Below, in pieces: positions 1,330-60,423 of a stretch of DNA of 64,000 bases (within the stretch, counting starts at the first letter, position 1; every line of letters starts with the position of its first letter). A program made the position numbers and the translations under genes. The stretch covers positions 22,622,146-22,686,145 of the forward strand of contig JAKCOZ010000001.1 of the NCBI GenBank assembly GCA_022605955.1, in the 5' to 3' direction. Origin of the DNA: Rallus limicola (lineage: Eukaryota > Chordata > Aves > Gruiformes > Rallidae). Below the pieces are notes generated by a model, which was not told where the DNA came from, made no database searches, and saw nothing but the letters and a program-made list of their open reading frames with translations.

Positions 1330-1379
1330 GGGCGGGTACAAATCGGGCGCTACCTGTCCCGGCAGGTGAGCGCCAACAG
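1330..1379 (+). other. RAB19: Candidate RAB19 noncoding first exon with two tandem donors
   Basis: Two copies of CAG followed by GTGAGC lie 14 bases apart, so the exon could end at 1365 or 1379. The coding exon is preceded by a pyrimidine-rich tract and CAG at 1493-1495, giving an acceptor with the exon starting at 1496. Either donor would join to the same 5' UTR without changing the protein. The exon start is not readable. Confidence 0.4.
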
Positions 1380-1513
1380 GTGAGCGGGTAGCTGGGTGGG
1401 GGGAGGGTGGGCGACAGGAGCCCCTTCCCCGGGCCCCCGACATTTGGGTCAGGGCGGCAGCTCTGCCCCCTCACTCCCGCGCTGCCCCGCCGCAGGCCCT
1501 CCCGGGAACCGCG

Positions 1514-37660: not shown

Positions 37661-37745
37661 ATGATTAGGAAGATAACCTATAGCCTAGGAAGGCATGTAT
37701 CTGCTGTAGCATGTGGGACCACCCAGGTGAGAAGATTTCTGCATG
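37661..37745 (+). other. First coding exon: putative mitochondrial targeting sequence
   Basis: It encodes [19 protein letters not shown] and then [10 protein letters not shown]. This is rich in Arg, Lys, Ser and Thr with no Asp or Glu, and it precedes the conserved [10 protein letters not shown] start of the glycosidase. Two donors are nested. GTGAGA at 37727 would break the frame with exon 2, while GTGAGT at 37746 keeps it (G/GT = Gly29) and is therefore chosen. The targeting role is an inference from composition. Confidence 0.7.
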
Positions 37746-40700
37746 GTGAGTACCATATTCTGAAACAGTTCCTGGGAGGAAAACATTTTTCTCTTCTGAA
37801 TGCAGCAAGGACTTTGCTGGCAGTGCTCAGGGAGCACACCAAGGAGCAGCAGTAGTCTCAATGTGTGAAAGTCTTACAGTATACTGAATTACTATGGTAT
37901 CCTTGATGCTTCCACTCTTTTAAAACATATTCTTTGGGCATGGTTGCAGGGCTCAGTGTGTTCCTAGTAATGGTACTTTAAAGTAACGTTACTGGAGCTA
38001 ATGACAACCTAGCTGCAAAACTGGTGGCAGAGGAGCACTCAGTGATGATGATGAAGGTTATTATTCATATTAACAGTAGAGATATTTTGCACATACTTCA
38101 CTTACATAAAACACAGCTTTAGTGTTCATTAAGTTATTTGTGAATTCACCTCAGAGAACAGCTGAAGAGTGGGATAAATTTGTTGTGATGATGACAATTT
38201 GACTTTTATAAAACAACTCAGTAGTTACTGTAAATACCCACACACATAATTTACTTTTCTGCATTTATCCCCAGGTGCTTATTTCAGGATTCATCCCTCT
38301 GTACAGGAAGCCCTGATGGAGGGGAGACCAGTCGTAGCCTTGGAAAGCACCATCATTACACATGGCATGGCCTATCCTCAGAATCTGAGGTGGTAGATTG
38401 TGATGTTCCTTATTCAACAAAGTTGTAAGAACAAGACATATAACTGGTGGATTGGTATCAGTATGCTTGTTCTAGCCAAAACCCTTCTAAAAGTAAATGG
38501 AAATGTCAGGTTGCTAGGCACGCAGAATATGAGCTCCAGTTTAAAACAATTGTATTTGGACTTTTAAGGACACATAAGGGGTACCTATTTATATCCTTAT
38601 CCAACACCTTAAATTTCTGTCTTCCTTTAAAATGTGGCAGCAGATAATGTCATGGTCTGCTGTAAGAGAGCTACCAGGCTTTTCAGCTTCCTCATTTGTA
38701 CAGACATTGAAAACACTGCAGTTTCTTTCAGTATATCTTTTGTAATGCTAAAAGGACTGGAACACAATAGTGAAATCTGTTTGTTAGTGCTACTCAGAGC
38801 TGCCGGTCCCTCTTGCTGCTTTCTGTGCCCTGCATAGAACCCCACCCCACTTCTACCCTTTATTCATTGATGTTCAGTAGATTTGTGTTTTGCTGAGTTA
38901 GTGCCAGAAATCACTGCACTCTCCTCTCCATTCTTTCTTCCAGAAAGTACAGGAATGTTTTGGTATTGATTTTCCATCTTGCTTTTTACCTGATCATTAT
39001 TTTGCCTGACAGTAAAGCTTTTAAAATTTTAGAATGAAGCTTTTAAAATTTGGTTGGGGGGGGGGAGGTTGTTTCAGTAGTTAAAGATTGCTTAGCATAT
39101 GTTCAGATAGCTCAGAAAGTGGGAAGCTGCTGCTCTTAAAAAGGAGAGTGTACCACCATCAAGTATAGAACCTGCAAAGCTTAGCAAGACCTATACTGCA
39201 GCCCTAGAGTATCCTCAGGCTGCAGCGTTTTGTCACTGTTGTTACTCCATATCTAATTGCCTGTGTTGTTGAAAATACATCCCAGTCATATGAACTTGAA
39301 TTACCTGGGGTTTCCGTGGAGGTCTGTGATCTCAGAGGAAGAATAGGTAATAGAGAAAGGTCCTACTTTGAGAAGAACCCTACTTTCAGTAGTCTGTTGT
39401 ACAACTAGATTTGCCTGTAAACCAAGTGATTTTTCTCAAAGCTGAAGCACAGAGCTTGGACATTGCTGCCCTGAAATAAGGAGCTCTGCACTTCTGCAAA
39501 TCCAAGTGCAAAGACTTCGGCTGTTAGGAAGATTCAGAAGAGGAACTGGACTTAGCCAAAATCACAGTAACTATATAAAACTGGGAGTGATAGCCATCAA
39601 ACATGTTGGTTTTCATGTCTGATTGTTTGCTTCACTAATTTTGTGACTGCTGTCTTGTTTGTCTTATTCTAGCATGGCTAGAGAAGTGGAAGAAATTGTA
39701 ACAACAAATGGAGCAGTCCCAGCCACTGTGGGTATTTTAAGGGGTCAGATCCATGTGGGACTCACAGATGAGGAACTGGAGTTCCTGGCAAGCAGTAAAA
39801 GTGTAGTTAAAGTGTCTCGGAGAGATCTTCCTTTCGTTCTCAGCCAGGTGTGGTATGCAGACTTTCTGTTGAGGTGTTTTCTGTGCAGCAATAGCTCTAC
39901 AGCTCTACAGCTTTAAGCCATGTGGCGTTTAAACCTCTTAAAGATGTCGTGTAAAGTGGCATCTTATTGGTAAACTCAAACATCATCCTACATACAAAGC
40001 ACAACAGGGTAGGGGAATAGCAGTCATGAAACAGGGCTCCTGAAAGTCGTTCTGGATCGGCTGGCAAGCCATGAGCACTCGGCTAAGAATATTCTCATTG
40101 CAATGATAAGGCAGAATCATGTTACATGTGACAGGCAGGCCACCCTGAGTAATGCACAGCGCTTAAGGTGACACTAGCTGGCCACAAAGCCTTCTGGTTG
40201 GAAAGCCCTGGAGAACAAAGGCTTTTGCTGTTGTTGGGGCAAGAGCAGCTTACGTAGCAGGGATAGGGATTCCTTGTAGAATATTTGTATCAGAATTTCA
40301 CTCATCAGCTGGTGACAGCCGGCCATTCTGATGTTGCATAGGGTAGACCACAACCATAGCTGCCTGTATGTGGTATTCTCAGGGCCACCCCAGGTGCTGA
40401 CTGTGACTGGTTGTCCCCTGGCAGGGCTTGTCCGGTGGCACTACTGTGTCTGGAACAATGATTGCCGCACACAAAGCAGGGATCCCTGTGTTTGTGACGG
40501 GTGGCATAGGAGGCGTCCATCGGGGAGGAGAGAACAGTAAGAAAATCAATACATTCTACTTTGGGTTGATGCTGTTTTACTTCATTCCGTCTTTGTCCCA
40601 GTCTGTCCTGCAGCAACTGTCTTTTCAGAAGAGATTCAAGTTATTCTCCCTGACAATAGTGCGGTTGTTTTCTCCCCAGTATCTCCTTTCCAGAAGCTTC

Positions 40701-43700
40701 AGAATATTTTTCTTGAGCACTGGCCAGTAGTCAAGAGGGTGGAAGTTTATCCTTAGCTTACATGGGGTAATATGAATATTGTTTGCTGGTGCAACAGGAG
40801 CTGACTGTACCCCTCCCACTTTGTAATGGCTGGATAACCCGATACTGGTGACCGAGCACAGTGTTGTTATCAGCTGAGAAGGAGGAGAGTCTCACTGCAA
40901 AAGAGACTTAGGTCCTGGTCTGTGTCAGAGGTGTGTGCTTTTTTGGAAAATGGCCCAGCCTTGGCAGTGTAGTTTGTGCCTTTGAAATACATTCTTTCTG
41001 CTGAGCCATATATGCACCTAGCATAGCATAAGCACATGGCCCCGCTGAATGCCGTCCCTTTCAGATGTGATATGAATTCCAGACCAGGGAGTTTCCTAAG
41101 GTCAGCAGATCTTCTGTGGCACTTTTTTTGGCAGTGATGTCAATACCAAACATCAAAATCTACTTAAATTATATTCCATTTCCTTGAGCTTCTTCCTTGT
41201 TTTATAACATCTTCTTTCTTTCCTATTGGATTTTTGCATGCTGCTTATTGATGTGATCAAAGAACGGAGAGATACAGTATAAGGTCACTCTGCCCTAAGC
41301 CATATGAATTTTTTTGGTCAATATCTCTTTCAATCTCAACACCTAAAGGCACAACCTAAACCTGTAAAATGTGTTTGTGGTTATAAATGGCTACAAAAGC
41401 AGGCAGTGGCATTCCAGGCAGATTATGGCTTTTTAAGAGGGCAGATCACATCAGCTTGGAGAACGACACAATCACCCATACAACGACTGCTTCTTCTTTG
41501 ACAGCTCTGGATGTGAGCGCTGATTTGACAGAGCTAGGACGAACTCCAGTTGCTGTTGTATCTGCAGGAGTCAAGTCTATCCTCGATATTGGCAGGACAC
41601 TGGAATATCTGGTAGGTAGAGTGGACTTCTGATCCTGAAAGCAGATAATGTTGTACTTTGTGTACAGAATGCCCAGTGGCGTTGGGGCTAGTATTTAGGC
41701 CTAACAGTTTTAGAAGTGACTGTTGAAAGGACGTGAAGCCATATTTACAGTTCTGTAGTTCTGGGGTACAAGACTGAGCTGCTCCCTAACATAAATCTAT
41801 CGATGCCCAAGAGGCTGTTCCAGCAGCTGTTCCAGCTGCGACCAAGGGCAGCACTAGCTATGCCCTGTTTCTCTGTCCTTAAACTTGCATTTCTGGGAAA
41901 ATGCTCCAGAACTGATGGATCAGACAAGCTAGATCCATCAAACACTAAAAATCAGAATTAAAATGGGAATCAAGATGATTTTCAGTAGAGTTGCTTTTTA
42001 AGGTTTGGTATGGTGTAAGCCACCAGGGCCAGCACTTCAGGTGGCAGCCAATGTCAGTACTTCTCAATTGCAAACAGAGCCCATTTACATTCCTGTCAGC
42101 TCATGACATATCGTCAGATCGCAGGTTGTTATGCTGGACTCAGTATTGCACTAATGCCAGCCACAGCTTCTGATCAGCTGTGACCACAAGCAGAGGACGT
42201 GCAAGTCTCCTATGTCTCAATAGGCCAGATCCTATCTGACCAGTTACCTGTCTGGGTCTGCTTTGAAAAATTTTGGTGGTAGAATGGAATAGAATGGGAT
42301 ATATTGAAATAACCAAACCCTGTGCTAACCGAAGGCAATTTCTAGCTGGATAGGAGGAAAAAGCAGCATTCTTTTGGTGAGTCCCCTTTCCCTCCACTGA
42401 TTACCTGCTTGTCTCACCTCCACCGCTGCAGGAGACTCAGGGAGTCTGTGTGGCTGCCTTTGGAGAGTCAAGGGAGTTCCCAGCCTTCTTCTCACGCCAG
42501 AGTGGCTTCCAGGCACCGTATCATGTCCGGGATGAAGAGGAGGCAGCTGAACTCATTGGTGTGTTTCAGAAGGAAAAGGCCCATGCAGGGCCCTCGAAAA
42601 GAGGGTTATAAAAATCACCTTAGATAGGGCACTTTCTTTTTTAACTTTGGAGAAGAGTTTTTCCCTAAAAACAAGCCATCCTGCTTCCCCCATTCCTGCT
42701 TTAGTGCTTCAAGAATAAAGGAGCAGGGAAGCTCAGTCTTTACAAGTTTTTTAACTAGCTGTAGCCACCTTGGCATGCTCATACACATTTTGTTCACACT
42801 GGTGAGGGAACATGTATGCTAATGTGCTTACAGAAACAGTTTCAGGGCTTTCAGAACTAGAATTTGTTTTCTTTAAAAAAAACCTCACAGCTTTGCCCCT
42901 TATATGCTACAGAGGGACTCAAAAGAAATAAGCAGATGTAAATTGATGAGTAGCTGGAAAAGACGCCGTCCTTGGGGCAGCTAAGAACAGGAGCCCTGGC
43001 ACCATGGGTTCCTTCATCTCATGCCCGCTCTTCCCTGTCCTTTTCCTTCAGCATCTAATTCATCCAGGGAGAATTGCTAACGATCTGCCTGTCCTCTCCC
43101 AGCCAGCACGTTGGGGCTAGGCCTGAGAAGCGGGGTGCTGATAGCAGTGCCCTGTCCCCAGGAGAGAGCTGCCTCAGCCCAGGTCATTGAAGAGGCTATC
43201 CAACAAGCTCTTGGTGAAGCCAGGTGAGAAGCAACCTAAGCCCTGTCCTTTGCTCACTCAGTAGTCTTGGAGAAGTAAATGGCTTCAGGGACACTATCAC
43301 AGGGGCTGTAGCCCAGCTTTACCTTGGGCGTGGGTGAGCCTGCAGCGTGCTTTCAACCATAGTTTTATCTAACCTGAAGCTTGTTTTCAGGACATCTCAT
43401 GGGATGTGGTTATGGAGATAAATTATCTACTAGCAGCAGCGCTTCTCCTCTGATGCTCTTTCAGCTCAGCCCTTCTCATCTACAGTCATTTTCTTTTCAT
43501 TTGCAGGTCCAAAGGGATCACAGGCAAAGAACTGACCCCCTTTATGTTACAGAAGATCAGTGAATTAACCGATGGGAAATCACTGGACTCCAGTATCCTT
43601 TTACTGAACAGGGGAAAAAAACCCAACTATGCCAGTGTACTTCATACCTCTCCTGATAATGCTTGTTGGAAAACACTGTCATTTTATTGACAGTCTAGTG

Positions 43701-46700
43701 AGGGGCAAACACTTCAGTATCTGCAAACAGATGAGAGCTTAGCCACTGCATCCTGCTTTTTCTATCCTCGTTTGATTTTGCATTAAAAATTGGAGGCCAG
43801 CACAGACAGGTGCTGGTAGTCCAGAGCCCAAAGAGATCCTTCCCATCTGATCACTGAGCTTGTCTGCTCTGTGATGGAACCTCAGGACCCTGTTGATTGT
43901 GGTGGGATTGCATACTGGAAGGTACCTGGGCTTCCAGGAGCACTGTACACTACATCACACTGCCTTATCCAGCTCTTCATGAGGGTACAGAGTAAGAGAA
44001 ACTTGGAAGAAAAACACCCCTGTCTGAGCAGGAATCCTTTTACACATGTAAATCAAAAGAAGATCTACTGGTTGGGATGCTGGCATGGGCTCTGGGAGAG
44101 TCAGGTTCACATCCAGGCTTTGCTGCCAGCCTTCTAGGGAGACCTGATCAGTTAGGGTAAACAGGTAAAGGGATTTTGGGGTACTAGAGCTCTATGGAGT
44201 CACAAAGTGGGGCTTTCAAAGCCTCTGATACTCTGTCCCTAGAGAAACTGCTAAAAAATATAAATCACTTTTAGAGACTTGGCAAAAAGCTTAGTAGGCA
44301 TCTCCTTTGGGAAAAACTGTCCAAGATCCTCTGGAGTTCTCAGACGCTTGGTTCTAGTTTAAGCATTTCACCTTCTCTTTTCTCTGTGAAGTTTGCTTCT
44401 GTTCCCTAGCTGTCAAATGAAGATGACAGGTTTCCTCTCCATGGACACAGTGGGAGGAAGATGAAAAAAATTAAAGCTTTGGGGTGTTCATGCAGTGCAG
44501 TGTATGTGCCCCCAAAGGACTGTGGTACAGGGGGATCAAATCTGTCAAATCTCAGAGTGTGCATTTTCTGCTCTTTTTCTCTAGGCAGCTCCTACATAGG
44601 CTTTTGACAGGTTGCTCTTGCTGGGTTTTTTATTTTCTTTTCCTCAAAGAAATGCCAAACAGACCTCGCTCTGATCCAGAACAACGCCAGAGTGGGCAGC
44701 TGCATTGCAGTGGCCCTTAGCAAACAGCAGAAGGCCAGAAGGAAGGGGAACCTGCTTCGGCAAGAGGACACAACCCCACCTCAGCCAGTGAGTCCCACGC
44801 AGCCCTCTGTGCAAGGCTGACAGAGCAGGATAAATTTATATCCATTCCCAAAAGTAAAAGGTGACTCAGCCAGCAACCAATCCTGCTTCACGCTGGCAGA
44901 CATTCTCTCTTTAGTATTTTTTTTCCTTCTCAGATAAATATCCTCCTCCTCTCCCATCAACATTTACAGGGAACAAACACTGACAGTGACCTAATCCCAT
45001 TAAGTCGTAGACTATCAAATCCATTAAAACTTTAATCACCTTTTCATCTTTTACTGTGCCCTCATGTACAACTTCAGCTCTATTGTTCCTGGTGCTAGGG
45101 AACTTATGAGTACAGGAGTAGACCTGGAAGAGGGTTGAGGGAAGTTTGAGCTGCTGAGCCACACACGTTTTATAAAAACCTCATTTTGTTGGCCTCCTGC
45201 TCATGATTGCTGAAATGACAAGAGGTACAGCATATCCCAAACAAGATCCATTATAACCCTAATACTCTATTCACTCTCTTGTATTCCGTGTGTGGCACGC
45301 AATTTATAGGAAATCTATTTTAAGAAGTCTTTCCACAGATGAAAAATTTTCTAAAACCCATTTGCAATAGGATTTGTCAACATAAAAGAGGGCAGTGACT
45401 CCAGAGGCAATAACCCAGCATTTGACGGAGTGAGAAAAAAACAGCTGAATGTCCCCAAAGAATCTGGAAACTTCCTGTTTTGTGGAGCTCTACTGCTTTT
45501 TCTGGCTTTGTAGGACAGTAAGACAGTGATCCATAAAGTGTCACTGGGTACGGCAGTTCCTCCAGGGAACTTGTGAGAAATTACTGCATTTTCCTGCCTC
45601 AATCTTCCCCATTTTATTTGCTTTTTTTTATACAGCAGAGCTTGAATGTGTTCTGAGGTTTGGTATGTCAGAAATTACCCCTGAAGAGATGGCTTCAAGG
45701 GCACTAACATGACCAGACCCGTGCAACTTATGTTACTCTATGACCACAGAGAGAAACCATCAGCACCCGTGTGTGTGTGTGTGTTTGTGCACAGTAACAT
45801 CCCACCTGCCACGCTGGGGCTGGCTGCAAACAGGCAGCCTTCAGAAAGCAACGTAGGGAAGAGAATTCAGTACTTTCTCATCAGGATGTACAGACCTGTG
45901 CTTAGTCATCCAAAATATGCACAGGCCTTCACGCTAGAAATTAGGCAGCTCTCAAGGGGGTGGGAAAAGTGACTACAGAAAGCAAAGACGACCTGCAGAT
46001 TTTTTCCCTCAAGTCCTTCCAACCATTTTTTACCTCTTTCTTCCCTCTTAAAGGTGGTGATTGGAGGTATCAACGTTGACTTTATAGCCAAGGCACAGAA
46101 CCCTGTCATCCTGGTACTGTATCTTTAGCAGTTTTCTTAGCACTGCTGCCATTTCCAGCTACGTTTACAGGTGGGCCAAGCCAAAGGAGGGTGGAGAGGA
46201 AGGCGATAACCCTGGGAATAGCCATGTGTCTCTATGCACACACTTGGGAGGTGCAGTGCTGTATATTTGGTGTGATGTCTAGATGGGCAATGGACTGACG
46301 TAGACTGACATACATCCAAATGTACTCTGTTCTCATGCTGAAAGTCACTATCCCCAGCACTCAAGACAGGGACAGAGCAGTGTATCATCTTTACAATCTC
46401 CACATATGACTTTGGCCCCTGCAGTCCATGTTAGGGTGCCTTGGGGCTACTCTCTGATGCCATAAGCCCAAAGAGCTCTTTGGCAGAAGAGCTGCCTCAG
46501 GCACTCTCAAAACACATATGCAAAGAGCTAGAAGCAATGAGTAAAGCCTGTCACTGTGCTATGACAACCTCTCATTCAAGGACAGACCCTCTAGGGAGGA
46601 GATCCCCAGGTAAGAGCCAGCTCTGGGTGCCTGGGACTGTCTTAGCAATGGAAAGCAGCATGAATAGGAGCAAGAGCAGCTGTGCAGAGTACCTTCAGCA

Positions 46701-49700
46701 GTAAGAAACCTTTGAGAAGAGTAGTGCTGACACAGTTACACTTGAACAGGAGATCCAGCTTCCTTAGTTATAAAAGATGAGTCATAAAAAATAAATAAAA
46801 AAAAAGAGTGCTTAAAAAAAAAGATTATTTTAAATGCTACCAGACTCTTTCCTGGTCAATTTAGTTTGACCAAGAAACAACCAAGAAGCAAAAGTGGAGC
46901 AGGCCTGGGATTTCCCTGGGCACATGAAAGACATTTGCATGGCCTATACAATTTTTGTTGATTGAGGCAATGCAGACTGAGGTAATGAGGCTTCCTCAAA
47001 AGTTGTTATGTGTCTTAAATTATTCTATGCTGGTTGGTGGAGCAGGAAGCTGTTGCTGTGAGATGGGGCAGTCTGTGAAGGCTTCTCAGTCAGATGGGGA
47101 AGATGTGCTGGGGAAGCCGTCCTTAAGGACAGCTATTCTGTGTCACCATCTGGTATGATAATGGTCAGGGGTGACATGTGCTGCAGCATCAGTTATGAAA
47201 GCTTGCAAAACCAAAAGTTCAACTGCTTCAGCTGTGATCTGACTGGTAACACACACACCCCACACTCAGGACAAGGAGCTAAGCTGTGGCCTGGAGTGCA
47301 CAGCCATCCCTTGGCACATTACATGTGAATGCAGATCCCTGGACCACCCATGGTGTGGTGAGGGGCCAAGGGCAGCTACAGGCCCGGCCAGGAACACCTG
47401 ATGGGAGAAAAGGAAAAAGGAGGTTTTAATGTTGCATGAAAAAGTGAGGCATTAGCTGCCCTTCTGTATACCAATGAGCCCTAGAGCTGATGGTCCATCA
47501 TGGCAGATACCCAAATGCCAAGCTGCAGGAGGATGTTGGAACTGGCAGCCAAAATGTTCCTGCTGACAGCTGCTGTGGTTAGGCACAGAGGAAAAGGCAC
47601 TCTCAACAGCATAGCTTTGTTTTGGCTTTTAAAGAGATTTTTTTTCAAAGGGCTCAGCACCCAGCAGGTCTCACCCTTACACATGCTGTTTGTTGCAGAG
47701 CACTGGAGTGCTGCTCACACCTCATGCTGTCTCACCAAGAAAGCAGCTGTAATTCCCATGTGACTTTGGAGGCTATCCAGAAGCAAAGTGCTTTATAAGT
47801 GTCTGACCTGCAGAGAAGGATGTGTGACCTTGCTCGGAGAAAGATGCTGGAAGAAGCATTATGGTTACAACTCTCTCAGGGTACCCAGAAGCTGAGCAGA
47901 GCCTCTTTTTTACATTAGGAATTCAAACCTCTGAGGACATAGAAGAAGGTTCCAGAGACTCTCAGTTCTCTGAAATATTGCCAGAAAGCCAGCCCAGTCT
48001 TATTTGGAATCATTTCAGCAAGCCCATTTTCATCTGAGTTCTTTTATCTCAGCCAGCCCCACCCGAGCACAACATAGAAGAGATACCAAAGTACTGTTTA
48101 TGCTTGGCGTTGCCAGCTAAGCTGGCAAGGTGTGATGACAGCCAGCAGTTCCTTTTTCTTCAAATGCAGGCTGCTACTTTCGCTCTTGCTGCACCCACCT
48201 TCTGCTTTAAAGAGGCCCTGTGGGGTTGTACAACAGCAGAGGTCACCCACAGCTGGATTGCTGAGCCTGGTGAGATGTACCTGAGGCTGGTACATCAGCT
48301 GTTAGGGCAAGGCTTGGTGTAAAAAACCTGAAACTCTGCCTTTGGGATTTGTGGGGGGCTGAAAGAGAAAGTCAGCATGCCAGGCAACAAAAGGACTCCA
48401 GGAGTATTTTCAACAGCCCTGTTAACATCAGTTTGGAAAAACAGGTAGTGAAGCTGCATAAAATAGAACTCATGTTCACTGCTGATGGCCTTAGTACCCT
48501 CTTTTCATGGGGTTTTATGGATAGCGAGCTTCAGAGTGCAAATAGCCAAGCTCAATGCTTTTGGAATCTGCAACACTCAACAGGAGACAGTTGCGGATGA
48601 TAGGAATAACGTCATTCCTGGCAGTACCCAGCAATTCCCAAGAAGCGTGAGTAAATGTAACAGAAGGGCATCCAGGTTGATGAGGAGTGACAAGTAGTGG
48701 AAGGATGAACAGAGGCCATAGGTTGCCTGGCAGTTCTGCTCAGGTGGTCTGAGCAGTTTGATGCTTGGAGAACTGCCAGACAGAAAAGCAAAGGCATCAG
48801 GAATTAGCACCAAGTCTTATAGACTGCAGAGCTGGGGAGTGTGACAACAGACAAAAGCCTGGGCTGCAGAAGGGAGTAGTAAAAGAGCACATTTAGCTGT
48901 AAGAGCAGCCTCTTCACTCATAGCTGGATGCAGAAGAAAGCACTGTGTGCAAAGGGCAGGCCTACAGCTTTGCACAGGGGAAGAAGAATCTTTGGGGAGC
49001 TTCAGTGTTAGTTTTGAGAATGCCAAAGAACAGTGACAGGTTGGAGGCTGAGTATTGCTTACTGTGCAATGGCAATGCATTTACGTGTTTAGGAGAGAGA
49101 CAAGCATCTTTGTGTTAGGACAGAGTCTGGCCCAGGAGCTGCTGTGTATGGGCATGCACATGCCTCAGCGCTTGCCACCCAAGCACTCAGCATACTCTGG
49201 AAGGCTCCAAGCTAACTGTGAAGATCATTATGACTACCAGTGGTGGTCTGTCTTCGGAAATGGAAAATAGGTTTCAGGATTTTATAAAACAAAAGCTTTG
49301 AAAGCATTTGATAGTCAGATGAAGCCCATCTGAGTTCTTACTGATGTAATTCTTCTGGCAGATGAATTAGAAAGGGGAGGACATGAGTGAGGGACCACCT
49401 ATATTCTGACAATTTGGCTGTTTGAGAAAGACTGACAGATGGACAGATGAGTCAAAGGCAGAGGCAGGCAAAGAGAGGTGGAAAAGATGGATATATTTGA
49501 TGAGAGAGATGTTTGGGAAGAGAATGATGAGTGCAGAAGTATTCAGACACCATATCCTTCCACAAGTAAAGCACAGAGGCAGCATAGGCAAAGGTAACAA
49601 ATCTCATTTTACCTTTAAAGAGGGAAAAAACCCAACCCCAAAGCACCAAACAACAAAACCCCCACACTGCTTATGGGAGTAGCTAAGATGCCTGGCAGGC

Positions 49701-52700
49701 AGCTGCAGAACCCATCAGGTCTGGGTCAGCAGCTGTGGAGTTCCAGTGCTGATGTAAACAGGTAAATTCAGAGGGCTGCCTGTATTGACTGAAACTCTCA
49801 TTAGTGTTGTTCTAAGAGGTCTTAGCAAATAAAACCAAACTAGCAACACGTGGGGAGACCAAACTGATCTCTCTTCAGAAGCTTGCATTGCTCTCACTCT
49901 GGTAGCTAGATGGCTTCTACCCCCTCTAATAGCTGACCTACATTTCAGTAGCATCAACTTCACATGCTAAGGAAAACATAGTACCTATGCCCAGCAGTCC
50001 TCCCAGTTTTGCCAATTAACAATTTATTCTTCCAGGGTGGTGGGCAAACAAACGCTGGAAGAGTGAGACGAACCTTTGGCGGCGTTGGAAGAAACTTGGC
50101 AGGTGCCTAGTGCTTGGGTTTGCCTGGGGGTGCGAGCCAGCTGCGATCTGTCCCTTGGTATTCATCCTTCAACAGCAGGAGCTCTTGAATGCTGCTGAGC
50201 TCTGGGATGTGTTAGGTGATACACCAGCAGGCAGGCTGCCTGCAAAAGGCGGGGGCATTCCAACAGTAAGAGGGGAAGGAGCTGCAGTCAGGAAAAGAGA
50301 AAGGTCCACAGATATGAAGTTAACTAATATATAGCACAGTGGCCCCAAATCAAAGTTAAATAAGCATCGGTGATGTCCAGTGACTGCCTGGCCCTGGCCT
50401 TGAATTAATGCCAGGTTGCAGTCGCAACAGAAGTATGTCTTAAGCAAGACCTTGAAAGGAGTGGGCTTATTCAGCGGTCACCCATGCACCACAGACAAGA
50501 GGTACTGAAGTGCAGCAGTTGCTGAAGAAGAGAAAGGGCTGCAGCTGTTGGGAAGAGAAAGGGATCACGCTGGACCTGGTGCTCCACCACAAAGCAGCAG
50601 GAGCGTTCGGGTATTGCAACAGTAGATCACAGAATGATTTTAAGATGATTCCTGCCTTTTTGACCTTTCCTCAATCTCCCTAACACAAGTCTACTATCAC
50701 TTCTGCTCACAAATGGAAAAATTTGAGGGGGAGGAAAAAAAAAAAAGCCAGCTGTGCCACCCACTGAGGTAATTTGTGGGAACATGAAGGGAGAGGGGGA
50801 AGCATTTCCCACTAATCCATTCAGATTTGGTGGTTCTAGTAAGATGCCATGGTGGGAACAGCAGTGTGGGAAGGCCAGCAGCAGGAAAGGCCCTGCACAG
50901 AAGCACCACAAGAAAGCCCACACACCTGTGATGGTAAAGGAGATGCTAGGACACAAGTTTCTACCCCTTCTTTTCTTTTCCTGTGCTCCCAGATGTTCCA
51001 AATCCCCCTCCCCCCCCCAAGAACTCAGAGTGTCAGTGCAGCAGGCAGAAGTAGATCACCCCACTCAACCCCTGCCAGTCATTTTCACCTTGAATGTCCT
51101 TCTAGACAAGGACTGGTGGACATTTTCAGTTTTTAAGGAGAGAGCTTTCCTACAGATGCTCATCCTACACAGGCTGTCACTGTGTTCACAGCACTCTGAT
51201 GGATTTATTAACATCTTTTGTTTCCATTTGCTTGTAGATTGCTTAAGCCGTCTTGGGCTGGCTCCACTCTTTCTATCTGCCATAGGGAAGGATGAACATT
51301 CAGAGTCCATCCTGCACTACTGTCACCACATGGTACGTTGCACAGCAGTGACACCTCAGGTGTGGAAATGACCACATTATGTAGTGGGAAAAGTCTTCTC
51401 AAGCCTGGCAGACATAAGAGCCACCTTCTATCTGACTAAGAGTAGGAATAATTCAATGCTCTTTTAGTTACAGACAATGTGAAGGCAAGAAGCCACACCC
51501 CCCCCCCCCCCCAAAGCACAGGCTAGATGTATGTACAGATTGGAGTCTGAACCATGGGCTCTGAATTCAGTTCCAGGGAGTGCTGCTTGAAAGAGAGAGA
51601 GGTAGGTAAATCAGCAGGAACCATGACAACTTCTAGAAAGGCCTAAGCACTCCAAGAAATACACAAAACCTGGCCCTGTGGATAGAAAAGCAATGCCAAA
51701 ACCAGCCTGGTTTGAGTAGAACATGAAACACAGAAAACCTGTATCCAGGAGCCTATGCTGGACACCTTCCAAGGTCTGATTAGTGGGATCCCCCCCAACA
51801 GCTGCAGATACCCCCCTAACTGCACACCAGAGGAATACCTGACTTCAGCAGCAGCTTGTCCCCTGAGGTCAGGGAGCCAGGAGGGGCAGGAGCCCATCAG
51901 AGACAGCAGGGCAGAATCTCACCACCAACCAGGAAGCAGAGCAGACAAGAGAACAACCCCAACCCAAGATGTTAGGCACCTCCATGGTGGAGAGGTAAGG
52001 CTGAAGATGAGCCAGGGGTGTGCATGGAGACCCCAGGTGAGGATGGTCAGGGCCATTAAAAACTATTAGTGCCCTTAGGGCCCTGGTATCCAAACAGAGC
52101 ACATGGGCCCTTAGTTGTGGCTACCTGAGCAACTCAGTAAATAAACTGGTAAGAACAAGGACTCTTTTTGCTTTATAAATAAAGGCTTTATAGCAGCAGG
52201 TCTATAATCCCTCCCTTTCCCAGCACAGCAGAGTTTGTGATATCTAAGTGAGCAGTCTCCCAAGGGAAATTAGCTGACCAGCAGCCAAGCAATCCTTCCC
52301 TGTAACAAAACCCATTACCACCAGTGTTGGAGAGGAGGACCCTTTCCTTAAAATCTCCCAACTTCCCTGTGAGCTACTAGGGGAAGGGTTTGCATTTATC
52401 CATCTGCACGTGTCTTCCAAGAAATGTCCCAAACTCTCTAAGCAGATCATTCAAAAGACCCACAGAGGAAGGATGCCTGGTAGCTATGTCTGTGACACTG
52501 CCGTAAGAATGGCTCCAAACCTGCCCTCCAAATCAGGCTGTGCAGTCAGTGAGGTGGCTGATGTAACCACTGGCTGGAGCATGCCACCAAGACCTACCCA
52601 GCATGTTGGCAGGCATTGAAGTGTCCCACCAGCTATGGGAATGGATAAATGGGTGGCTGGAGCAAGCAGTGCTTCAGCCACTTGACAGAGACACTACTTA

Positions 52701-55700
52701 TGTAACGGGATGGCAGCGACCTGTCACCGTCCTTTACTATGTGATTTCTTGAACCTGTAGCATCTGTTTCATTGCAAATATTAAAAACTAGCCACCTGCC
52801 AGGATTGTCTACACCAAGATACCTCTGAAAAGTTGCATATCTCAAGGGGGAAGGGAGAACAGCAAGCTGATCAGGTGGACACAAAGAATGAGATGAGCCT
52901 TGCAGGGAAGAGAAACATGGTTCTTGTTTAACTATAATTCTCCTCCCTGTTTTAGGACATGAGCGCTGTCCTTCAGCTGGAGGGGAAGAGCACAGCCACT
53001 TACTGTGCTGTGATCACCAGTGCCGGGGAGCTCAGCGTTGGCTTGGGAGATATGGACATCCACCTCCAGATAACCGAGCAATACGTATGCATTCCATCTG
53101 ATTTGTAACCTTTCTCTTAGGAGAAGGAGTGTGGATGTGTGACAAGAGGCAACTGGCGAAGCTGTACTGGGAGGGAGTGGGTGCGCAGAGGGAATGTGGG
53201 AAATCCTGAAGTCAACTCCAGGCATTGGCCACTGAGGTAGCAGTGTGGAGGAGCTACCAAGAGCCCTCTGGTGCTGCTGACCCACATGGAGCTTCTATCT
53301 GTTTCTCCTCCATACAATATCATCACTACTATTGTCCCTTGACATATAGGCCACGATCTTCATTAACTAGTTCCAGCTAACCTATTGTTTTTGGCAACTT
53401 AAAGCCAGCAATAAACCCAGTCTACCTGCAGAAGTAATGGTGTTTCTCCATTTAGAGTAAAAAAAAAAAAAAAACCACCACAAAAAATGGACAGAGCCAG
53501 TTAAAGCAAGTTTTCCTTTTCTATCCTCTCCCTGTTGTTTCTACATGCTGAGTTGTTATTAACAGACACTGCTGCTCAGTGCATCCAAACCTTCCAAATA
53601 TCAGGGCTGATGGAAGCTGCTGTGATTAAGGCCTGATTCACTGAAAGCCCCATCACTGCACCCTCCTTCCCACCTTATTCTTTTGTCGACAAAACAAAAG
53701 CCTGTGCTTCATGACTGACAGCGACAAGGAAATTAAGTGCCATTTACTCACTAGTGGGATATCCATGAGGCAGAGACTTTCTAGGGAAAAATATGGTCAT
53801 CGCTCCTGCTTCCATCCCCACCCTGCCTCTCCCAGGGCTTGTCACAGAAACCCATTACCTGACAGATTAATACTCCTGAGCTTTGGGAAGCAGCTGTGGC
53901 CCAGTGGAAACTCTGAACAAATCTCCTGCTGCAAAGTACCTTGTGGCAGCCCCTCTTTCTGCCAGGATTATGAGAGACATGGGAGGGATGCTTCTTGAGT
54001 GCCTGTAGCACCGGCCTGATGTTCAGGCATTGGTTGAGAGGCCTCAGAGAGCCAAAAGAGGGAACTGCAGCTTCCCACTCTACTGCTCCACTTGTCCCCC
54101 ATCCCTACACGATTTAGTAGGACTCAGGAATAAAACACTGTGATGAACAACCTGTGTCAGGAGGGCACTGTGCACAGAGGACACCTAAATGACATGTGCA
54201 GCAAACAAAGGTGTAGGCAAGGCAGGCATAGTCCAGGGAATCCCATGGTGGCACTGAATAGCAGCATTCCCTTTCCCTGTAGGTCTCTGACTGACCCATG
54301 GGTACGAAAGTGGTCTAGTGAGGACCAGCAACTACCTTTCTCTGCTTGAGTTGAGTCCAGAGGAAGGACAAGAGGCAAGGGAGATGAGACAAATAGAAAA
54401 ATCATTTTTTCTTAGGGAGTCAGGGCCTGTAATATGAGGGAAAATCCTACACCCTGAGCCTGAATAGCAATCATTTTGTCCCTCTGCAATGACTCGAGCT
54501 GTCTCTATTCTGTGTCCTGGATTTTCACCAGGTGTCCCAGTTTAAGGAGAACCTGTGCCAGGCCCCGCTAATTTGCATTGATGGAAATGTGCCTCTTTCT
54601 ACTATTCAGTACGTCTGCCAACTAGCTAGAGAGCATCAGCTAGCAGGTAAGAACTCACCCAGCCCTGGCCTCGCATCTCCTACCCGTGTGTGTGCCAAGA
54701 CCCTCCACACACTTTGTGTGCTCACACTGCTCCTTACCGGAGTTACGGCCTGACGTGCTGTACTGCTCGGCACTCCTTTCTGTACACTGCTCTCTATTTC
54801 AAATGGATGAAACATCCCTGCTTTCTCTGAGTCTTTCTCATTCTGCAGCTAAATTACATTTCCTGTAGCGTAGGTGCTGTAGCCCTTGGGCACTGCCAGA
54901 CATCCAGGGAAAGCTGCTTTTTTGGAATCTCAAAGCAAGCACAAATGAATGTGCTTCTGCCAGTTTGAGCAGCAATATAGTTTGCTTCTCAGAATAAGGC
55001 ACCTTCTGAGAGGATTTCTCTCCCACTTCCCATAAAATGCATACTTCCCCTCCCCTGGTACGCTGGAGACCCTTCCCAAAGCATCCTAAGCATTTGGAGT
55101 TAGGACTTCATTTTTAAAACCAGATCTTGAAGAAGGAGAAAACTTCTTAAGCTTAAAACCTGGAAGAGGCTCCAAAATTGGCTAAAAGGAATAACAAACC
55201 TCAAGTCTGATTATATCTCCCATGAGCCAAAAGCAACAGCATCATTACTGAACCCCAGAAAGGAAACCTTGGGAGCCCTTGTCACCAGCATGGGGGAAAT
55301 AGTATTTCAGTTTTTAATGGATTACATTGTTGTGCAGATCACTCTGAGCCTTCTACGCTGCATCCTGCTCTGATGTAGAGACTAATTAATTAATGAACTA
55401 ACCAATTGCAATGTTGTTTTGAAGTGTGCTATGAGCCAACAGATGAGAACAAGGCCTCTAAGCCATTCCTCTCAGACAGCTGGAAAGCACTCACATACAT
55501 TTCCCCCAACCTGCAAGAGCTAAGAGCAATAAATCGGACCCTTGGGAACCCTCTGCCAGCAGGTATTGAATACTCAGAAGCATCAGTCACACTTTTAGAT
55601 AACCTAGATCCTGGAGAGAAGCATTCTCTGCTCCATGCTCCATTTCAAGCAAATAGGTTATAACACAGTGGGGATTCATAAACACTCGTGCTGTCTTCCA

Positions 55701-57947
55701 CATTACAGCCATCTCTGTGTGGGTTGTATGGCCCTGGCCAGGCTGATGATCTGTCAAAGAGCACAGTAGGCTTAAGGTGGCTCCTTGTCCAAAACCAGAG
55801 AGCCCATTTGCCTCACTTCATCAGCTAAACAAGAACAATCTCTGGTTTATAAACATGTCTCTGAAGCATGATGCTCTGAAGGCACCTACTCCAACAGTAC
55901 TACTCTGTGCAGAAATTAAATACCCAAACCACATGCAGGTGGAAACCTAAGAGCATTGAGACAAAGAAGTCATGCTTCATCACAGTTTTTTTGAACTTTA
56001 AAGACATGTTTAGTCCCAATGAGGAGTGGTTTTCCTCATCATAAGATAGAGGCATGGAAGGCTAACTGTGGAGAATTCCACATTTCCCATGATTTAAAGT
56101 AAAAAAATTCTATCAGCCACATTTCAGAAGTGCTCATAAACAGTAGTGCTCATAAATAGTAGTAGCGGTTCTCATAAATAGGCTGCCAGCCCATAAAAGG
56201 GCCAGTTGAGGTTCTCTGGAGTTATACCACAGTTTTTCCTCCTCCTTGCTCTCTGAAGAGCTGCCATCCAGGTTGGAGGATGTTGTCCAGACTGCAATGG
56301 CCCTGGCGCGCCCTTTGCTGGCCCACCTGCACTGTGTGGTGGTGACCCTCGGTGCTCACGGTGTCCTCCTGTGTGGCAGGAACCTGGGAGGGAGAATCTC
56401 GCTTCGTCCAGGAGCTCACGGACAGGTAAGGGCACAGAAAACAACCTCTGAGCTCTTCACTTGCTTCTTTCTGGGACTATACTGCAATGTTGCTATTTCT
56501 GGTGGCATGGCAGCAGTCCTGGGAAACGTGGCGTCACTGCTGGCAAATATGTATGTTTCGGGGGTGGAATACGCAGCTCTGAAAGAAAACCAAGTTGTCT
56601 GTCCACATGCTGCTGGCTCCTAGCAGCAGTGTTTATAGTCAGCCAGTCTGAAATGCACTTACTGTGAATATTCATGAGTGCAAGCTTCATGTTCAGGAAG
56701 CTTCATTTACATTGCTGATCTCCTTCAAAGCATGAAAAAAAAAATAAAAATTATAGCTTCTTTTGGTTTTCCCTTTCTTTTCTTTTTGGCATCCATACCT
56801 GTGTGGATGGCATCAGCCACACCAGGCCCTATCAGCATTGGCAATAACCACCAACTTCTCTCCCTGCACAGCCTGCTGCTGCCAGCCTCTGTGCCACCCA
56901 CTACCCCGCCATCCACATCAGCAGGGAGGAGATAGTCAATGTCTCGGGCGCCGGTGACAGGTATATTGCTCTCTCCTTTGTCTTCTCCAGCTAAATGTGG
57001 TAGGGCCATAATTGGATTTCTTTTACATTCTGCTGCAAAGGCAAACAACACTCTGCTGCTTGAGGAGCAGGCACCAAGGACGCAAGAACAGGACTGGTTA
57101 CCGGGGTTCCTTGTGAAGCTTGCTAAAGGAAATGCCCCGCTAAGCATCTGGGAAGGCAGTCTTGCCATTATTAGTTTTGCTTTTCTTGAAGATCCAAGAC
57201 TTTCATGGCAATACAGTAGCTCTGAATGAGTCCAGGCTGAGCTGCTAAAAGCAAAGTAAAGCACCTTACATCAAAGCTGCCTTTCTAACTACCTGCTGTA
57301 CTACCACGCTTCCCTAATGGAAGCAGGACTGCCATGTGATAGGTAAAATTGCCCTATAAAAGCATTCCATCAGGGTCTGCATTTGCCTCCAGCAATGGCT
57401 TATGCCTCAGAAGAGCCTAGCTCTGTTCCCACAACACTGCACATAGGAGCAGGAAATGACAGGTATTATTCCTAGCCCCACTGATCAGTCTGTCAGAGCA
57501 ACATCTGATTATACTCCTTGTTAACTTGTCAAACTGTATGTAGCACTCAGGGTTTTATTCTTCTTGCTTCATATGCAACGATAATTGATTCCATCCTTTC
57601 AGTGCCTTGGGCTACACCGCAAGGCTGTACGTGACAGATACTTCCTTTTATTTTTCTACTCTCACCTAGTAATAACTCAACATAGCAACACTTGGGGTTG
57701 GACTCGATGATCTTTATGGGTTCTCTCAGTATATTCTGTGTTTCTATGACTTCTTTTGTGAAACTTACAGCATCCTCAAGTATTTGAGTACAGATCAATC
57801 AATAGCTTCTTCCCAAGTTAGTTTAACCCACTTAACACCAGGGAACACTCCACGTGTCCTGAATCACCTCTGAGATGAGTTGAATGCAACTGCAAACTGG
57901 TCTTCTCCAAAGGAGACCAAAGTGTTGTGGGTATAACAGCAGAGGAA

Positions 57948-57993
<46 letters not shown>

Positions 57994-60060
57994 CTGGGAG
58001 GAACCCTGCAGGGTCAGCCCGTCCTAAGGAAAGCTCAGCTTTGCTCACTCCTTCCAGCAGATGTGCCCAAAACTCTGCCAGCCCCTCCAAGGACACAGCC
58101 TCCTCTCGGCACCATCTGCTCTTCAGGACAATTTTTCTAGAAGCTAATGTAAACTAAACATCTTCAACTTCAGGCTTTTCTTTCCCCTTCTAAAGCTTTA
58201 CTTAAGGGGAAACCAAAGGTGAGATAGTGTGTCATTGCCAAACACCTACATGGAGTTATGCAGGAGTGTTTCCAAATGCTTCCAAAGCTACCTGAAAGCT
58301 AGGGGCCTGTTACTGCTCCCATTCCTGAAGCAGTATGGGTCTGGAAATCCCATTCCCCACAGTTTCCAGGTCCATGTGGGAATTTTCACAGTCCCCTTGT
58401 TCATCCAGGGAGGTCCTTTCTTGAACCCTAGCTGCTCCACTGAGCTGCAGAAATCCCCGCTCCACAGAGTAAGGGTGCCCAAGCAGGCTGGAAATGCTGG
58501 CACTACACTGGTGTACACACCATCTCCACAGGATATAAACTGGTAACATCACCCAAGCCCAGTCCGCTGGCATTTGCAGGGGACTTTGCGGCAGGGTGTA
58601 ACACAGGGTGTAACACATTCATGGCTCAGCCTCTGCGCACCCTCCCAACTTCTGAAGCTCTGGTCAGGGGATGCTGCACATCCAGAAACAGCGATCCAGG
58701 GCACCTCATGCCTTCACCCTTGCAGCTCTCCTACAACTCCAGAGATGCTGCCCGCGGAGCCATGCATGGGAGAAGGGTGCAGCGGCTGTTTGTTCCCTAC
58801 ACCTGGCTGCCGTGACAACATAACAATGCACGGCATTGCTAGGGGATGCTCCCCCAAATATTTACTCTGAACCTCTGGAGCTGCTGAGAGATTGAATGCT
58901 TTATGAAAACCATAATCTTTTGTGCCTTTGTTATGGGTAAAAAGCTGGTGAGGTAATTAGTCAGGGCACAAAAAGGAAAAGTAATCTTTTTCCCTTCCCC
59001 ATAGATTTGCTCATTAATCCCCCTGCCATCACATTTTCCTGCCCTCACTTCTTCCTCTCAGATGTCATTATCTTCCCCCTTCTCTTTCACTTCTTTGTTC
59101 TTTCCTAGCTTCTGAACTTCATTACTGCATTTGGCTGTGAATAAACAGTAATTATTCCCAGTCAATCACCAACACCCCCACATGTATCCATGCCTCAAGG
59201 GAGCCTTCCCCCTGCCAGCCAGGCGGGTGGCAAAATCACCCCCTTCTCCTGATGGCCTCCTTGGTGCCCTGCGAGGCCTGGCGAGTGAGAGGCCTCTTGT
59301 TCCAAGCGCTCACATCGCTTTTATTGGGAAATCTCAAATAGAAACCCACAGCTACAGCTTATAAAAGTCTGATTTCAGCTTTGGATTTCTTTTTTCCCAG
59401 ATGTGCCTGTTGCCCCACTCATGCATATATATGGAAATTTTACCTCTCTTCCCATTTGCCTCTTTGGGGGACAGGGGGGAGTGTTAATGAGGCACCAGCA
59501 AGGGGAAGTGGAAAAGAATAATTAGAGAACAAGGGAAAAAAAGATTCTTCCCTTCTTACACTCTCTTGTTTCCTCCTACCTCACCTGGAAAACTGGGGAG
59601 AAAAATGTGGTGGAATGGGAAAGTACCTCAACTTCTCAATTAAGCAGCAAATAAATAGCACTATTTCTTACACCAAATCACAAAATAAATAATCAAAAAG
59701 CAAAGACTTTTAATTATAACCTCAGCCCTCCAATGTGACTTATTCTGCTTCTCTAAGTGTTGGTTTGGGTCCAAATGATCTCTCTTACCAAAAAAAAAAT
59801 GGCCATGTTACTGAGGTCAAAGCTGTTCCCCAGCATTCAAAACTGTCTGTCTTTCTTTCCACAGCTTAATGGCGGGAATGCTTGCAGGGATGCTTGCTGA
59901 GCATGACACAGATACCTGTGTCCAGATGGGTCTGCTCGCTGCAAGCTTGTCTCTCCGTTCCTATGAGCCCATTTCTCCAGAAATCAGCACTTGCAGTGTC
60001 AGCCAGGAGCAAGCTAAGAAGAGGAGCTGGCCAGAGATGAAGGTATGGAAGATGGACTAG
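37661..60060 (+). CDS. Bifunctional pseudouridine-5'-phosphate glycosidase / PfkB-type pseudouridine kinase (18 coding exons, 702 aa)
   Basis: Exons: 37661-37745, 38275-38389, 39673-39847, 40425-40536, 41505-41611, 42432-42558, 43103-43223, 43507-43592, 44663-44787, 46054-46113, 50036-50102, 51238-51332, 52956-53084, 54532-54646, 55425-55562, 56259-56425, 56872-56960 and 59865-60060. All have GT-AG borders, and the phases close to 2109 bases (702 residues plus TAG). Residues 30-330 are PsuG: the kinase product, pseudouridine 5'-phosphate, is split to uracil and ribose 5-phosphate. Residues 352-690 are a ribokinase-like PfkB kinase that would make that phosphate. The same fusion is known from fission yeast C1861.05 and from some vertebrate annotations. 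The first 29 residues look like a mitochondrial presequence. Key residues of both halves are intact, so I expect two active domains. No standard symbol is certain. Confidence 0.93.
38275..44787 (+). other. PsuG (pseudouridine-5'-phosphate glycosidase) half, exons 2-9
   Basis: Hallmarks in order: [11 protein letters not shown] (E52), VKVSRRDLP (K113), [12 protein letters not shown] (126-137), [12 protein letters not shown] (147-158), [10 protein letters not shown] (D165), [11 protein letters not shown] (K186), [12 protein letters not shown] and [15 protein letters not shown] (N316/N317). By spacing these correspond to E. coli YeiN Glu31, Lys93, metal-binding Asp145, Schiff-base Lys166 and Asn289, as I recall that enzyme; the 52- and 21-residue gaps from Lys113 to Asp165 to Lys186 agree exactly. 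A basic, proline-ended linker (about 329-351) leads to the kinase. Confidence 0.92.
45769..45784 (+). repeat. GT dinucleotide microsatellite
   Basis: Eight uninterrupted GT units inside intron 9 of the pseudouridine gene. Confidence 0.9.
46114..50035 (+). other. Intron 10 of the pseudouridine gene
   Basis: The largest intron (3.9 kb), with donor GTACTG and acceptor CTTCCAG. It holds A-rich runs near 46785-46825 and an A/C-rich stretch at about 49620-49670. The many 60-90 codon frames have no recognisable family. I see no RNA gene. Confidence 0.75.
50103..56258 (+). other. Introns 11-15 of the pseudouridine gene
   Basis: Donors GTGCCT, GTACGT, GTATGC, GTAAGA and GTATTG pair with acceptors TTGTAG, TTTTAG, ACCAG, TTGAAG and TGAAG. 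Low-complexity pieces include C runs near 51500-51512 and an A run near 53460-53475. Repeated 'gtgctcataaa' words occur at about 56131-56180. Confidence 0.75.
57694..57750 (+). repeat. CR1 LINE 3' tail
   Basis: 'ggggttggactcgatgatct' followed by 'ttatgggttctctcagtata' and an 'attctgtg...tctatgac' ending is the diagnostic CR1 3' end in the sense direction. Confidence 0.8.
57949..57993 (+). repeat. Uninterrupted run of 45 G
   Basis: Forty-five consecutive G residues lie in intron 17, about 200 bases after a CR1 tail. The length is unusual for a genomic homopolymer of G. It may form a quadruplex, or its true length may be uncertain in the assembly. Confidence 0.95.
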
Positions 60061-60351: not shown

Positions 60352-60423
60352 GTTGATAGTTTCTCTCACCTCCCGCTCTGAGCAGAAGTTGATAGTTTCT
60401 CTCACCTCCCGCTCTGAGCAGAA
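60352..60423 (+). repeat. Exact 36-bp tandem duplication
   Basis: Unit 60352-60387 is repeated without change at 60388-60423, about 290 bases after the stop codon. It starts GTTGATAGTTTCTC and ends GAGCAGAA. Confidence 0.95.

What the first reader, a model, noticed from the sequence alone, without database searches (positions are those of the whole stretch)
37661..60060. Intact vertebrate gene for complete pseudouridine breakdown in one protein
Eighteen exons join with correct phase into 702 codons containing a full PsuG glycosidase followed by a PfkB kinase. Key residues of both families are present (E52, K113, D165, K186; GAGD with D637). Bacteria use two separate proteins (YeiN, YeiC) and plants use PUMY and PUKI. 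Mammals are usually described as excreting pseudouridine unchanged. A fused, apparently functional copy in an animal of this type suggests that it recycles pseudouridine from RNA turnover into uracil and ribose 5-phosphate, and that mammals lost the route.
Basis: partly seen in the sequence, partly recalled or inferred. Interest (0 to 1): 0.88.

Follow-up and report, generated by a model that had tools for sequence, protein, structure and literature searches.

The report
Bird gene that breaks down pseudouridine
This stretch of a bird-like genome holds one intact gene that joins the two enzymes bacteria use to dismantle the modified RNA building block pseudouridine; such fused genes are already known in animals, and their reported absence from most mammals is what makes an intact vertebrate copy worth testing.

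Summary
Eighteen exons (37661-60060, +) join across 17 of 17 GT-AG introns into 702 codons with no internal stop. They encode a complete PsuG-type glycosidase (residues 38-327) followed by a PfkB kinase (352-676). PsuG matches occur only here in a 1.395-Gb genome. That genome holds at least 150 beta-keratin matches, so it is a sauropsid, most likely a bird. The glycosidase keeps 92 of 101 near-invariant bacterial columns. The kinase matches E. coli PsuK better than seven other E. coli PfkB proteins and keeps 10 of 12 pseudouridine contacts. Simulated neutral decay nearly always leaves a lesion by 2% divergence. Best reading: a working bifunctional enzyme, pseudouridine + ATP to pseudouridine 5'-phosphate to uracil + ribose 5-phosphate. 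It is not a new kind: fused 'PsuKG' proteins in metazoa, including zebrafish, and their absence from mammals except platypus, are published (PMC9247573). What this adds: a complete bird-type gene model beside a makorin-like and a DENN gene, a presequence-like N terminus, and changed base-pocket residues (T512, D513). Activity and expression are untested.

The parts
37661..37745 (+). exon 1, codons 1-29: N-terminal extension, acid-free, resembling a mitochondrial presequence
37642..37660 (+). probable 5' untranslated part of the first coding exon, after a strong splice acceptor; implies an upstream non-coding exon
   Evidence: sequence read; not proven
38275..38389 (+). exon 2, codons 29-67: start of PsuG domain, E52 (= E. 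coli E31)
39673..39847 (+). exon 3, codons 67-125: PsuG, K113 (= K93)
40425..40536 (+). exon 4, codons 126-163: Psu[10 protein letters not shown] motif, T150, H157
41505..41611 (+). exon 5, codons 163-198: PsuG, D165, D169, K186 (= D145, D149, K166)
42432..42558 (+). exon 6, codons 199-241: PsuG
43103..43223 (+). exon 7, codons 241-281: PsuG
43507..43592 (+). exon 8, codons 281-310: PsuG, N310 completed at the next junction (= N289)
44663..44787 (+). exon 9, codons 310-351: end of PsuG and linker; a phase-0 intron follows exactly before the kinase domain
46054..46113 (+). exon 10, codons 352-371: start of PfkB kinase, N358 and D360
50036..50102 (+). exon 11, codons 372-394: T376, GGVGRN motif (G387, V388, N391)
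51238..51332 (+). exon 12, codons 394-425: kinase
52956..53084 (+). exon 13, codons 426-468: kinase, Y441 and M458 of the base pocket
54532..54646 (+). exon 14, codons 469-507: kinase, N487
55425..55562 (+). exon 15, codons 507-553: kinase, K516, N535, E538 and the two changed pocket residues T512, D513
56259..56425 (+). exon 16, codons 553-608: kinase, GXXG small ATP loop (G584-G587)
56872..56960 (+). exon 17, codons 609-638: GAGD motif with catalytic D637
59865..60060 (+). exon 18, codons 638-702 and stop codon

Best explanation
This is a single-copy, intact vertebrate gene for a bifunctional pseudouridine-degrading enzyme (the kind called PsuKG). The C-terminal PfkB domain phosphorylates free pseudouridine from RNA turnover with ATP (catalytic D637). 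The N-terminal PsuG domain then cleaves the C-C glycosidic bond of pseudouridine 5'-phosphate through a lysine (K186) and returns uracil and ribose 5-phosphate. Shown here: gene structure, domain completeness, conserved residues, subfamily placement, copy number at the sensitivity, and neighbours. Inferred: catalysis, substrate, expression, direction of flux, and that fusion keeps the intermediate from escaping. Also inferred, less surely (about 0.5): import into mitochondria by the N-terminal extension.
For: 18 exons, 17 of 17 GT-AG introns, 702 open codons. Indigoidine_A and PfkB domains over nearly the whole profile. Best solved relatives are PsuG (8k05, 330 bits; E. coli 4gij, 287 bits) rather than AlnA (179 bits); for the kinase, the plant PfkB 7c1x (AtPUKI; PMC9247573 gives 7C1Y, listed under the same sequence), then pseudouridine kinase 7vkp. 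E. coli PsuG E31, K93, T130, H137, D145, D149, K166 and N289 are all kept. 92 of 101 columns at least 95% uniform in 80 bacterial PsuGs are kept, and 20 of 23 in 71 neighbouring kinases. In bacteria the partner kinase sits upstream on the same strand in 71 of 80 loci, ending within 200 bases of the PsuG match in 70 of those 71. A profile of those 71 kinases scores the window kinase at 192 bits, against 146 or less for RbsK, YdjH, FruK, PfkB, KdgK and Gsk. Of 12 pseudouridine-contact residues of E. coli PsuK, 10 are identical; by the same rows RbsK and YdjH share 5 each and YeiI 11. The N1-contact position (S30 in E. coli by my count) is Thr (T376), as in AtPUKI. Simulated neutral decay leaves 6.6% of copies lesion-free at 1% divergence and 0.35% at 2%.
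Against: No transcript, protein or assay data. Two base-pocket residues that are V (68 of 71) and S (71 of 71) in the bacterial kinases are T512 and D513 here, and a third near-invariant residue, G (70 of 71), is H575. The kinase has a long branch and its place among pseudouridine kinases is not firmly supported (92/93, below the tree tool's own mark). None of the 17 NCBIfam families matched reaches its cut-off: pseudouridine kinase is first at 81.8 of 540 bits, ribokinase second at 73.9 of 299.65. No other animal sequence could be compared, because the protein database was switched off, so selection was not measured directly. For import: the rest of the protein holds acid-free runs of 42 and 66 residues, longer than the 39 at the N terminus, so lack of acids alone is not telling.
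Confidence: 0.85

Rival explanations
1. The fused protein is active, but the kinase half has shifted to another nucleoside or sugar, so the pair no longer runs a simple pseudouridine route.
For: T512 and D513 replace V166 and S167 of the E. coli pocket. The kinase is only 29% identical to E. coli PsuK and has a long branch. Ribokinase is a close second in NCBIfam.
Against: K516, N487, Y441, M458, N358, D360, N391 and V388 of the pocket are kept. S167 contacts the base only through a water molecule. The kinase is fused to a PsuG whose neighbour in bacteria is a pseudouridine-kinase-like gene. PMC9247573 says that substitutions at other pocket positions between AtPUKI and EcPsuK do not impair binding.
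Confidence: 0.1
2. The gene is intact by descent but no longer expressed or needed, a very recent loss.
For: No expression data. Mammals are reported to lack the gene, so loss is tolerated in vertebrates.
Against: No lesion in 702 codons or 34 splice dinucleotides. Simulation gives lesions in more than 93% of copies at 1% neutral divergence. Most near-invariant residues are kept.
Confidence: 0.03
3. The enzyme runs mainly in the other direction, making pseudouridine 5'-phosphate from uracil and ribose 5-phosphate.
For: PsuG was first named pseudouridylate synthase and is reversible in vitro (recalled; a 1970 title in the reference list of PMC9247573 uses the synthetase name).
Against: A kinase that supplies pseudouridine 5'-phosphate in the same chain makes sense for breakdown, not for synthesis. 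No need for free pseudouridine 5'-phosphate is known to me.
Confidence: 0.02
4. The gene model is an artefact of bacterial contamination or of chance joining of exons.
For: None found.
Against: Seventeen GT-AG introns, a 128.4-Mb contig, neighbouring animal-type genes, and domain alignments that run across the junctions.
Confidence: 0.005

Closest known systems
PsuKG, eukaryotic fused pseudouridine kinase-glycosidase (fission yeast, zebrafish, fly, nematode; named in PMC9247573)
   Same: Order PsuG then PsuK on one chain; mostly conserved recognition residues; GXXG small ATP loop as described for yeast and zebrafish.
   Different: Here in a sauropsid, most likely a bird; T512 and D513 in the base pocket; presequence-like first exon. 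I could not compare sequences with the named PsuKG proteins.
E. coli PsuG (YeiN) and PsuK (YeiC)
   Same: 51% and 29% identity; all eight mapped PsuG positions kept; 10 of 12 mapped PsuK contacts kept.
   Different: Two separate proteins with the kinase gene first; no N-terminal extension.
Arabidopsis PUMY and PUKI
   Same: Same two activities; 7c1x (AtPUKI) is the best solved relative of the kinase half; Thr at the N1-contact position as in AtPUKI.
   Different: Two proteins, peroxisomal according to the title of Chen and Witte 2020 (reference list). The bird protein has no PTS1 or, in its first 60 residues, PTS2 motif by a simple pattern test.
AlnA (C-glycosynthase relative of PsuG)
   Same: Same family (4ex8, 179 bits).
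   Different: Weaker match than named PsuG chains (284-330 bits); no fused kinase is known to me.

Membership tests
PsuG, pseudouridine-5'-phosphate glycosidase | complete Indigoidine_A domain above the Pfam cut-off | tested here: met
   437.6 bits against a cut-off of 25.2, profile 2-291 of 291
PsuG, pseudouridine-5'-phosphate glycosidase | catalytic set E31, K93, D145, K166 (roles recalled from the E. coli enzyme), plus T130, H137, D149, N289 | tested here: met
   E52, K113, D165, K186, T150, H157, D169, N310
PsuG, pseudouridine-5'-phosphate glycosidase | cleaves pseudouridine 5'-phosphate to uracil and ribose 5-phosphate | not testable with these tools
   needs an assay
Pseudouridine kinase (PsuK/PUKI), PfkB superfamily | PfkB domain with GG(V)xRN motif, GXXG loop and GAGD catalytic Asp | tested here: met
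   G386-N391, G584-G587, G634-D637
Pseudouridine kinase (PsuK/PUKI), PfkB superfamily | pseudouridine-contact residues of E. coli PsuK (PMC9247573) | tested here: inconclusive
   10 of 12 identical; V166 is T512 and S167 is D513; S30 (N1 contact) is T376 as in AtPUKI
Pseudouridine kinase (PsuK/PUKI), PfkB superfamily | closer to pseudouridine kinases than to other PfkB kinases | tested here: met
   operon-kinase profile: window 192 bits, six other E. coli PfkB proteins 146 or less; direct phmmer: PsuK 76.0 bits, YeiI 54.3, RbsK 39.2; tree agrees without firm support
Pseudouridine kinase (PsuK/PUKI), PfkB superfamily | reaches the curated NCBIfam pseudouridine kinase cut-off (a bacterial and archaeal naming model) | tested here: not met
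   81.8 bits against 540; it is the best of 17 families, none of which reaches its cut-off
PsuKG fused protein | both domains on one chain, PsuG first | tested here: met
PsuKG fused protein | sequence grouping with zebrafish, yeast or nematode PsuKG | not tested
   protein database switched off
PsuKG fused protein | spliced transcript and expressed protein | not testable with these tools
   no RNA data

The most novel reading that the evidence does not exclude
Birds dispose of pseudouridine inside mitochondria with one channelling enzyme. Its first exon works as an import signal, which moves the route from the peroxisome, where plants keep it, to the organelle. Its altered base pocket (T512, D513) tunes which pseudouridine derivatives it accepts. 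Mammals, having lost the gene, must excrete what birds recycle.
Probability: 0.27. Interest if true: 0.55.

Novelty: new member of a known kind. Interest (0 to 1): 0.36.

Why it matters
PMC9247573 says it is open whether animal PsuKG proteins metabolise pseudouridine at all, and how pseudouridine from mRNA vaccines is degraded. A complete bird-type gene model gives a ready subject and a natural contrast: vertebrates with the gene against mammals without it. If active, pseudouridine would be a metabolised compound in birds, which would bear on its use as a marker of RNA turnover and kidney function outside mammals (inference).

Tried and rejected
Contamination or chance exons: rejected by gene structure, contig and neighbours. 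A mammalian source was considered, because it would have changed the meaning. It is rejected by 150 beta-keratin matches (150 of 200 candidates scored, the listed rows above cut-off; that PF02422 is sauropsid-specific is recalled). Prokaryotic promoter scan: not meaningful for this genome, not used. Two viral-contig scans confirmed no relative. tRNA and Rfam scans of the window were empty. Papers: PMC9247573 (passages; sections 7, 8, 9 and 11), PMC12411936 (part 1 of 3), PMC8745165 (passages). [quoted passage not shown] 2021 and Preumont et al. 2008 were looked up by DOIs from memory and are not held (the first two DOIs agree with the reference list seen, Preumont's was not checked). For Chen and Witte I saw only its title and what PMC9247573 says of it. 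Statements about what is in print rest on the five answered searches, 78, 82, 86, 88 and 95. One search, for birds and excretion, listed 2 papers, neither about pseudouridine breakdown by its title or start of abstract; I did not read them.

Full report
Observation. tblastn with E. coli PsuG and PsuK against the window gave a colinear series of plus-strand hits from 38.2 to 57 kb. The PsuG exons are mostly strong; the four kinase exons are weak (E 0.00087 to 2.6) and scattered weak hits also fall elsewhere. Reading the surrounding sequence gave one chain of 18 exons, 37661 to 60060. All 17 introns are GT-AG, phases agree, and the joined frame has 702 codons, one terminal stop and no internal stop. 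Pfam finds a full Indigoidine_A domain (38-327, 437.6 bits) and a nearly full PfkB domain (352-676, profile 5-298 of 302, 115.8 bits). The kinase domain begins at codon 352, exactly at the phase-0 intron between exons 9 and 10.

Setting. The window is C1:22622146-22686145 of a 1,395,466,701-base genome in 1102 contigs. Seven candidates were scored and six matched Indigoidine_A; all six lie in exons of this gene, so it is single-copy at this sensitivity. At least 150 beta-keratin matches (150 of 200 candidates scored) mark a sauropsid, most likely a bird (the inference from beta-keratin is recalled knowledge). On the left lie a Rab gene (Ras domain above cut-off in three open frames) and, on the minus strand, a makorin-like frame whose four Pfam matches, MKRN1_C among them (24.8 bits, cut-off 25), are all just or well below cut-off; I name it MKRN1 from recall as well. 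On the right, DENN-domain exons on the minus strand lie at C1:22696414-22696602 and C1:22704545-22704778, 10 to 19 kb past the window's end. I recall RAB19-MKRN1-DENND2A as the human order, so the gene probably sits in a conserved interval; that was not tested against a mammal. CpG islands lie at about 0.25-1.75 kb and 30.5-32 kb. None lies at the ATG, but a strong acceptor 19 bases upstream of it suggests a non-coding first exon, perhaps in the island at 30.5-32 kb. In the 3.9 kb after the stop the only AATAAA/ATTAAA on the plus strand is at 62854.

Glycosidase half. It is 51% identical to E. coli PsuG over 310 positions, with E31, K93, T130, H137, D145, D149, K166 and N289 all kept. Among solved structures, chains named PsuG score 284-330 bits, an uncharacterised relative 191 and the C-glycosynthase relative AlnA 179. 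Against 80 bacterial PsuGs (the best 80 of 591 found), 92 of 101 columns that are at least 95% uniform are kept. The nine that differ are S57T, P61A, R77T, A130G, P204C, G250S, N256V, L294M and I311L, written as bacterial residue, window position, window residue.

Kinase half. In bacteria the neighbouring gene tells the partner: 71 of 80 loci have a PfkB relative upstream on the same strand, 70 of those 71 ending within 200 bases of the PsuG match, and no open frame in the 80 loci matches both halves. Of the nine without one, L058 holds only about 0.67 kb to the left of the match; the other eight hold 3 kb there. A profile of the 71 kinases scores E. coli PsuK at 331 bits, YeiI at 273, the window kinase at 192, RbsK 146, YdjH 131, FruK 90, PfkB 78, KdgK 58 and Gsk 14. 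Direct comparison gives PsuK 76.0, YeiI 54.3, RbsK 39.2 and less for the rest. A tree puts the window kinase among the operon kinases, but on a long branch and without firm support. In NCBIfam no family reaches its cut-off; pseudouridine kinase (81.8 bits) leads ribokinase (73.9). The window keeps 20 of 23 kinase columns at least 95% uniform; the three that differ are V512T, S513D and G575H.

The E. coli PsuK-pseudouridine structure (PMC9247573 section 7) names N14, D16, G41, V42, N45, Y97, M114, N143, V166, S167, K170 and D256 as contacts. The window has N, D, G, V, N, Y, M, N, T, D, K and D: 10 of 12. By the same rows YeiI has 11, RbsK 5 and YdjH 5. The N1-contact residue, S30 in E. coli and T26 in Arabidopsis, is T376. 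The two differences, T512 and D513, are real departures: the bacterial kinases have V in 68 of 71 and S in 71 of 71, and the plant kinase also reads EPVS there. PMC9247573 reports recognition residues well conserved in yeast, zebrafish and nematode PsuKG. Whether T512/D513 is shared by vertebrates could not be tested.

Is it alive? Starting from this coding sequence, 2.7% of random substitutions make a stop. With modest indel and splice-site rates, 6.6% of simulated copies are lesion-free at 1% neutral divergence, 0.35% at 2% and 0.05% at 3%. The indel rate and transition bias are my assumptions. The gene has therefore been under constraint until recently or still is. Direct selection tests need orthologues, which were not available because the protein database was switched off.

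Localisation. Residues 1-39 hold no acidic residue and six R/K in the first 33. The best 18-residue hydrophobic moment there exceeds 98% of windows in the protein. 104 of 100000 random draws of 39 residues from the rest of the protein match on charge alone. Against this, real stretches of the protein contain acid-free runs of 42 and 66 residues, so shuffled draws overstate how rare this is. There is no PTS1 pattern, and no PTS2 pattern in the first 60 residues. The whole resembles a mitochondrial presequence and differs from the peroxisomal plant pair (title of Chen and Witte 2020, reference list). It is a prediction from simple measures, not a trained predictor.

Mechanism. Pseudouridine from RNA turnover is phosphorylated at the 5' hydroxyl by the C-terminal kinase and then cleaved by the N-terminal glycosidase to uracil and ribose 5-phosphate. 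Fusion would keep the phosphorylated intermediate, reported as toxic in plants (same title), from accumulating. Only the anatomy is shown; catalysis and channelling are inferred.

Known or new. PMC9247573 states that in metazoa, amoebozoa and fungi the two homologues reside on a single chain and that mammals generally lack them except platypus, and it names the fusions PsuKG. PMC12411936 describes a fused gene in Candida albicans and its knock-out (part 1 of 3 read). The finding is therefore a new member of a known kind. Its value lies in the complete vertebrate model, the open question of activity in animals that PMC9247573 itself raises, and two features not mentioned in the parts of the papers I read: the presequence-like first exon and the T512/D513 pocket.

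Noticed in passing
window 1370-5527 (+): Rab GTPase gene (Ras-family matches in open frames 1370-1891, 2629-2988 and 5228-5527), probably RAB19 by recalled sequence and position; CpG island at its 5' end.
   Followed up: partly
window 13481-31359 (-): Makorin-like gene on the minus strand (sub-cut-off MKRN1_C and CCCH-finger matches at 13481-13858). Its likely first exon lies in the CpG island at 30.5-32 kb (an open frame at 30868-31359 gave no Pfam match), head to head with the pseudouridine gene.
   Followed up: partly
window 57949-57993: Uninterrupted run of 45 G in intron 17, a place where assembly or sequencing errors are likely.
   Followed up: no
window 60352-60423: Perfect tandem duplication of a 36-base unit about 290 bases after the stop codon, probably in the 3' untranslated region.
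   Followed up: no
window 60040-60044: In-frame AAG|GTATGG in the last exon is a possible alternative donor; another C terminus cannot be excluded without transcripts.
   Followed up: no
L095 269-457 and 8400-8633 (C1:22696414-22704778, -): DENN-domain gene convergent with the pseudouridine gene, probably DENND2A by recalled synteny; a 426-aa open frame at L097 7096-8373 (-) may be its large exon.
   Followed up: partly
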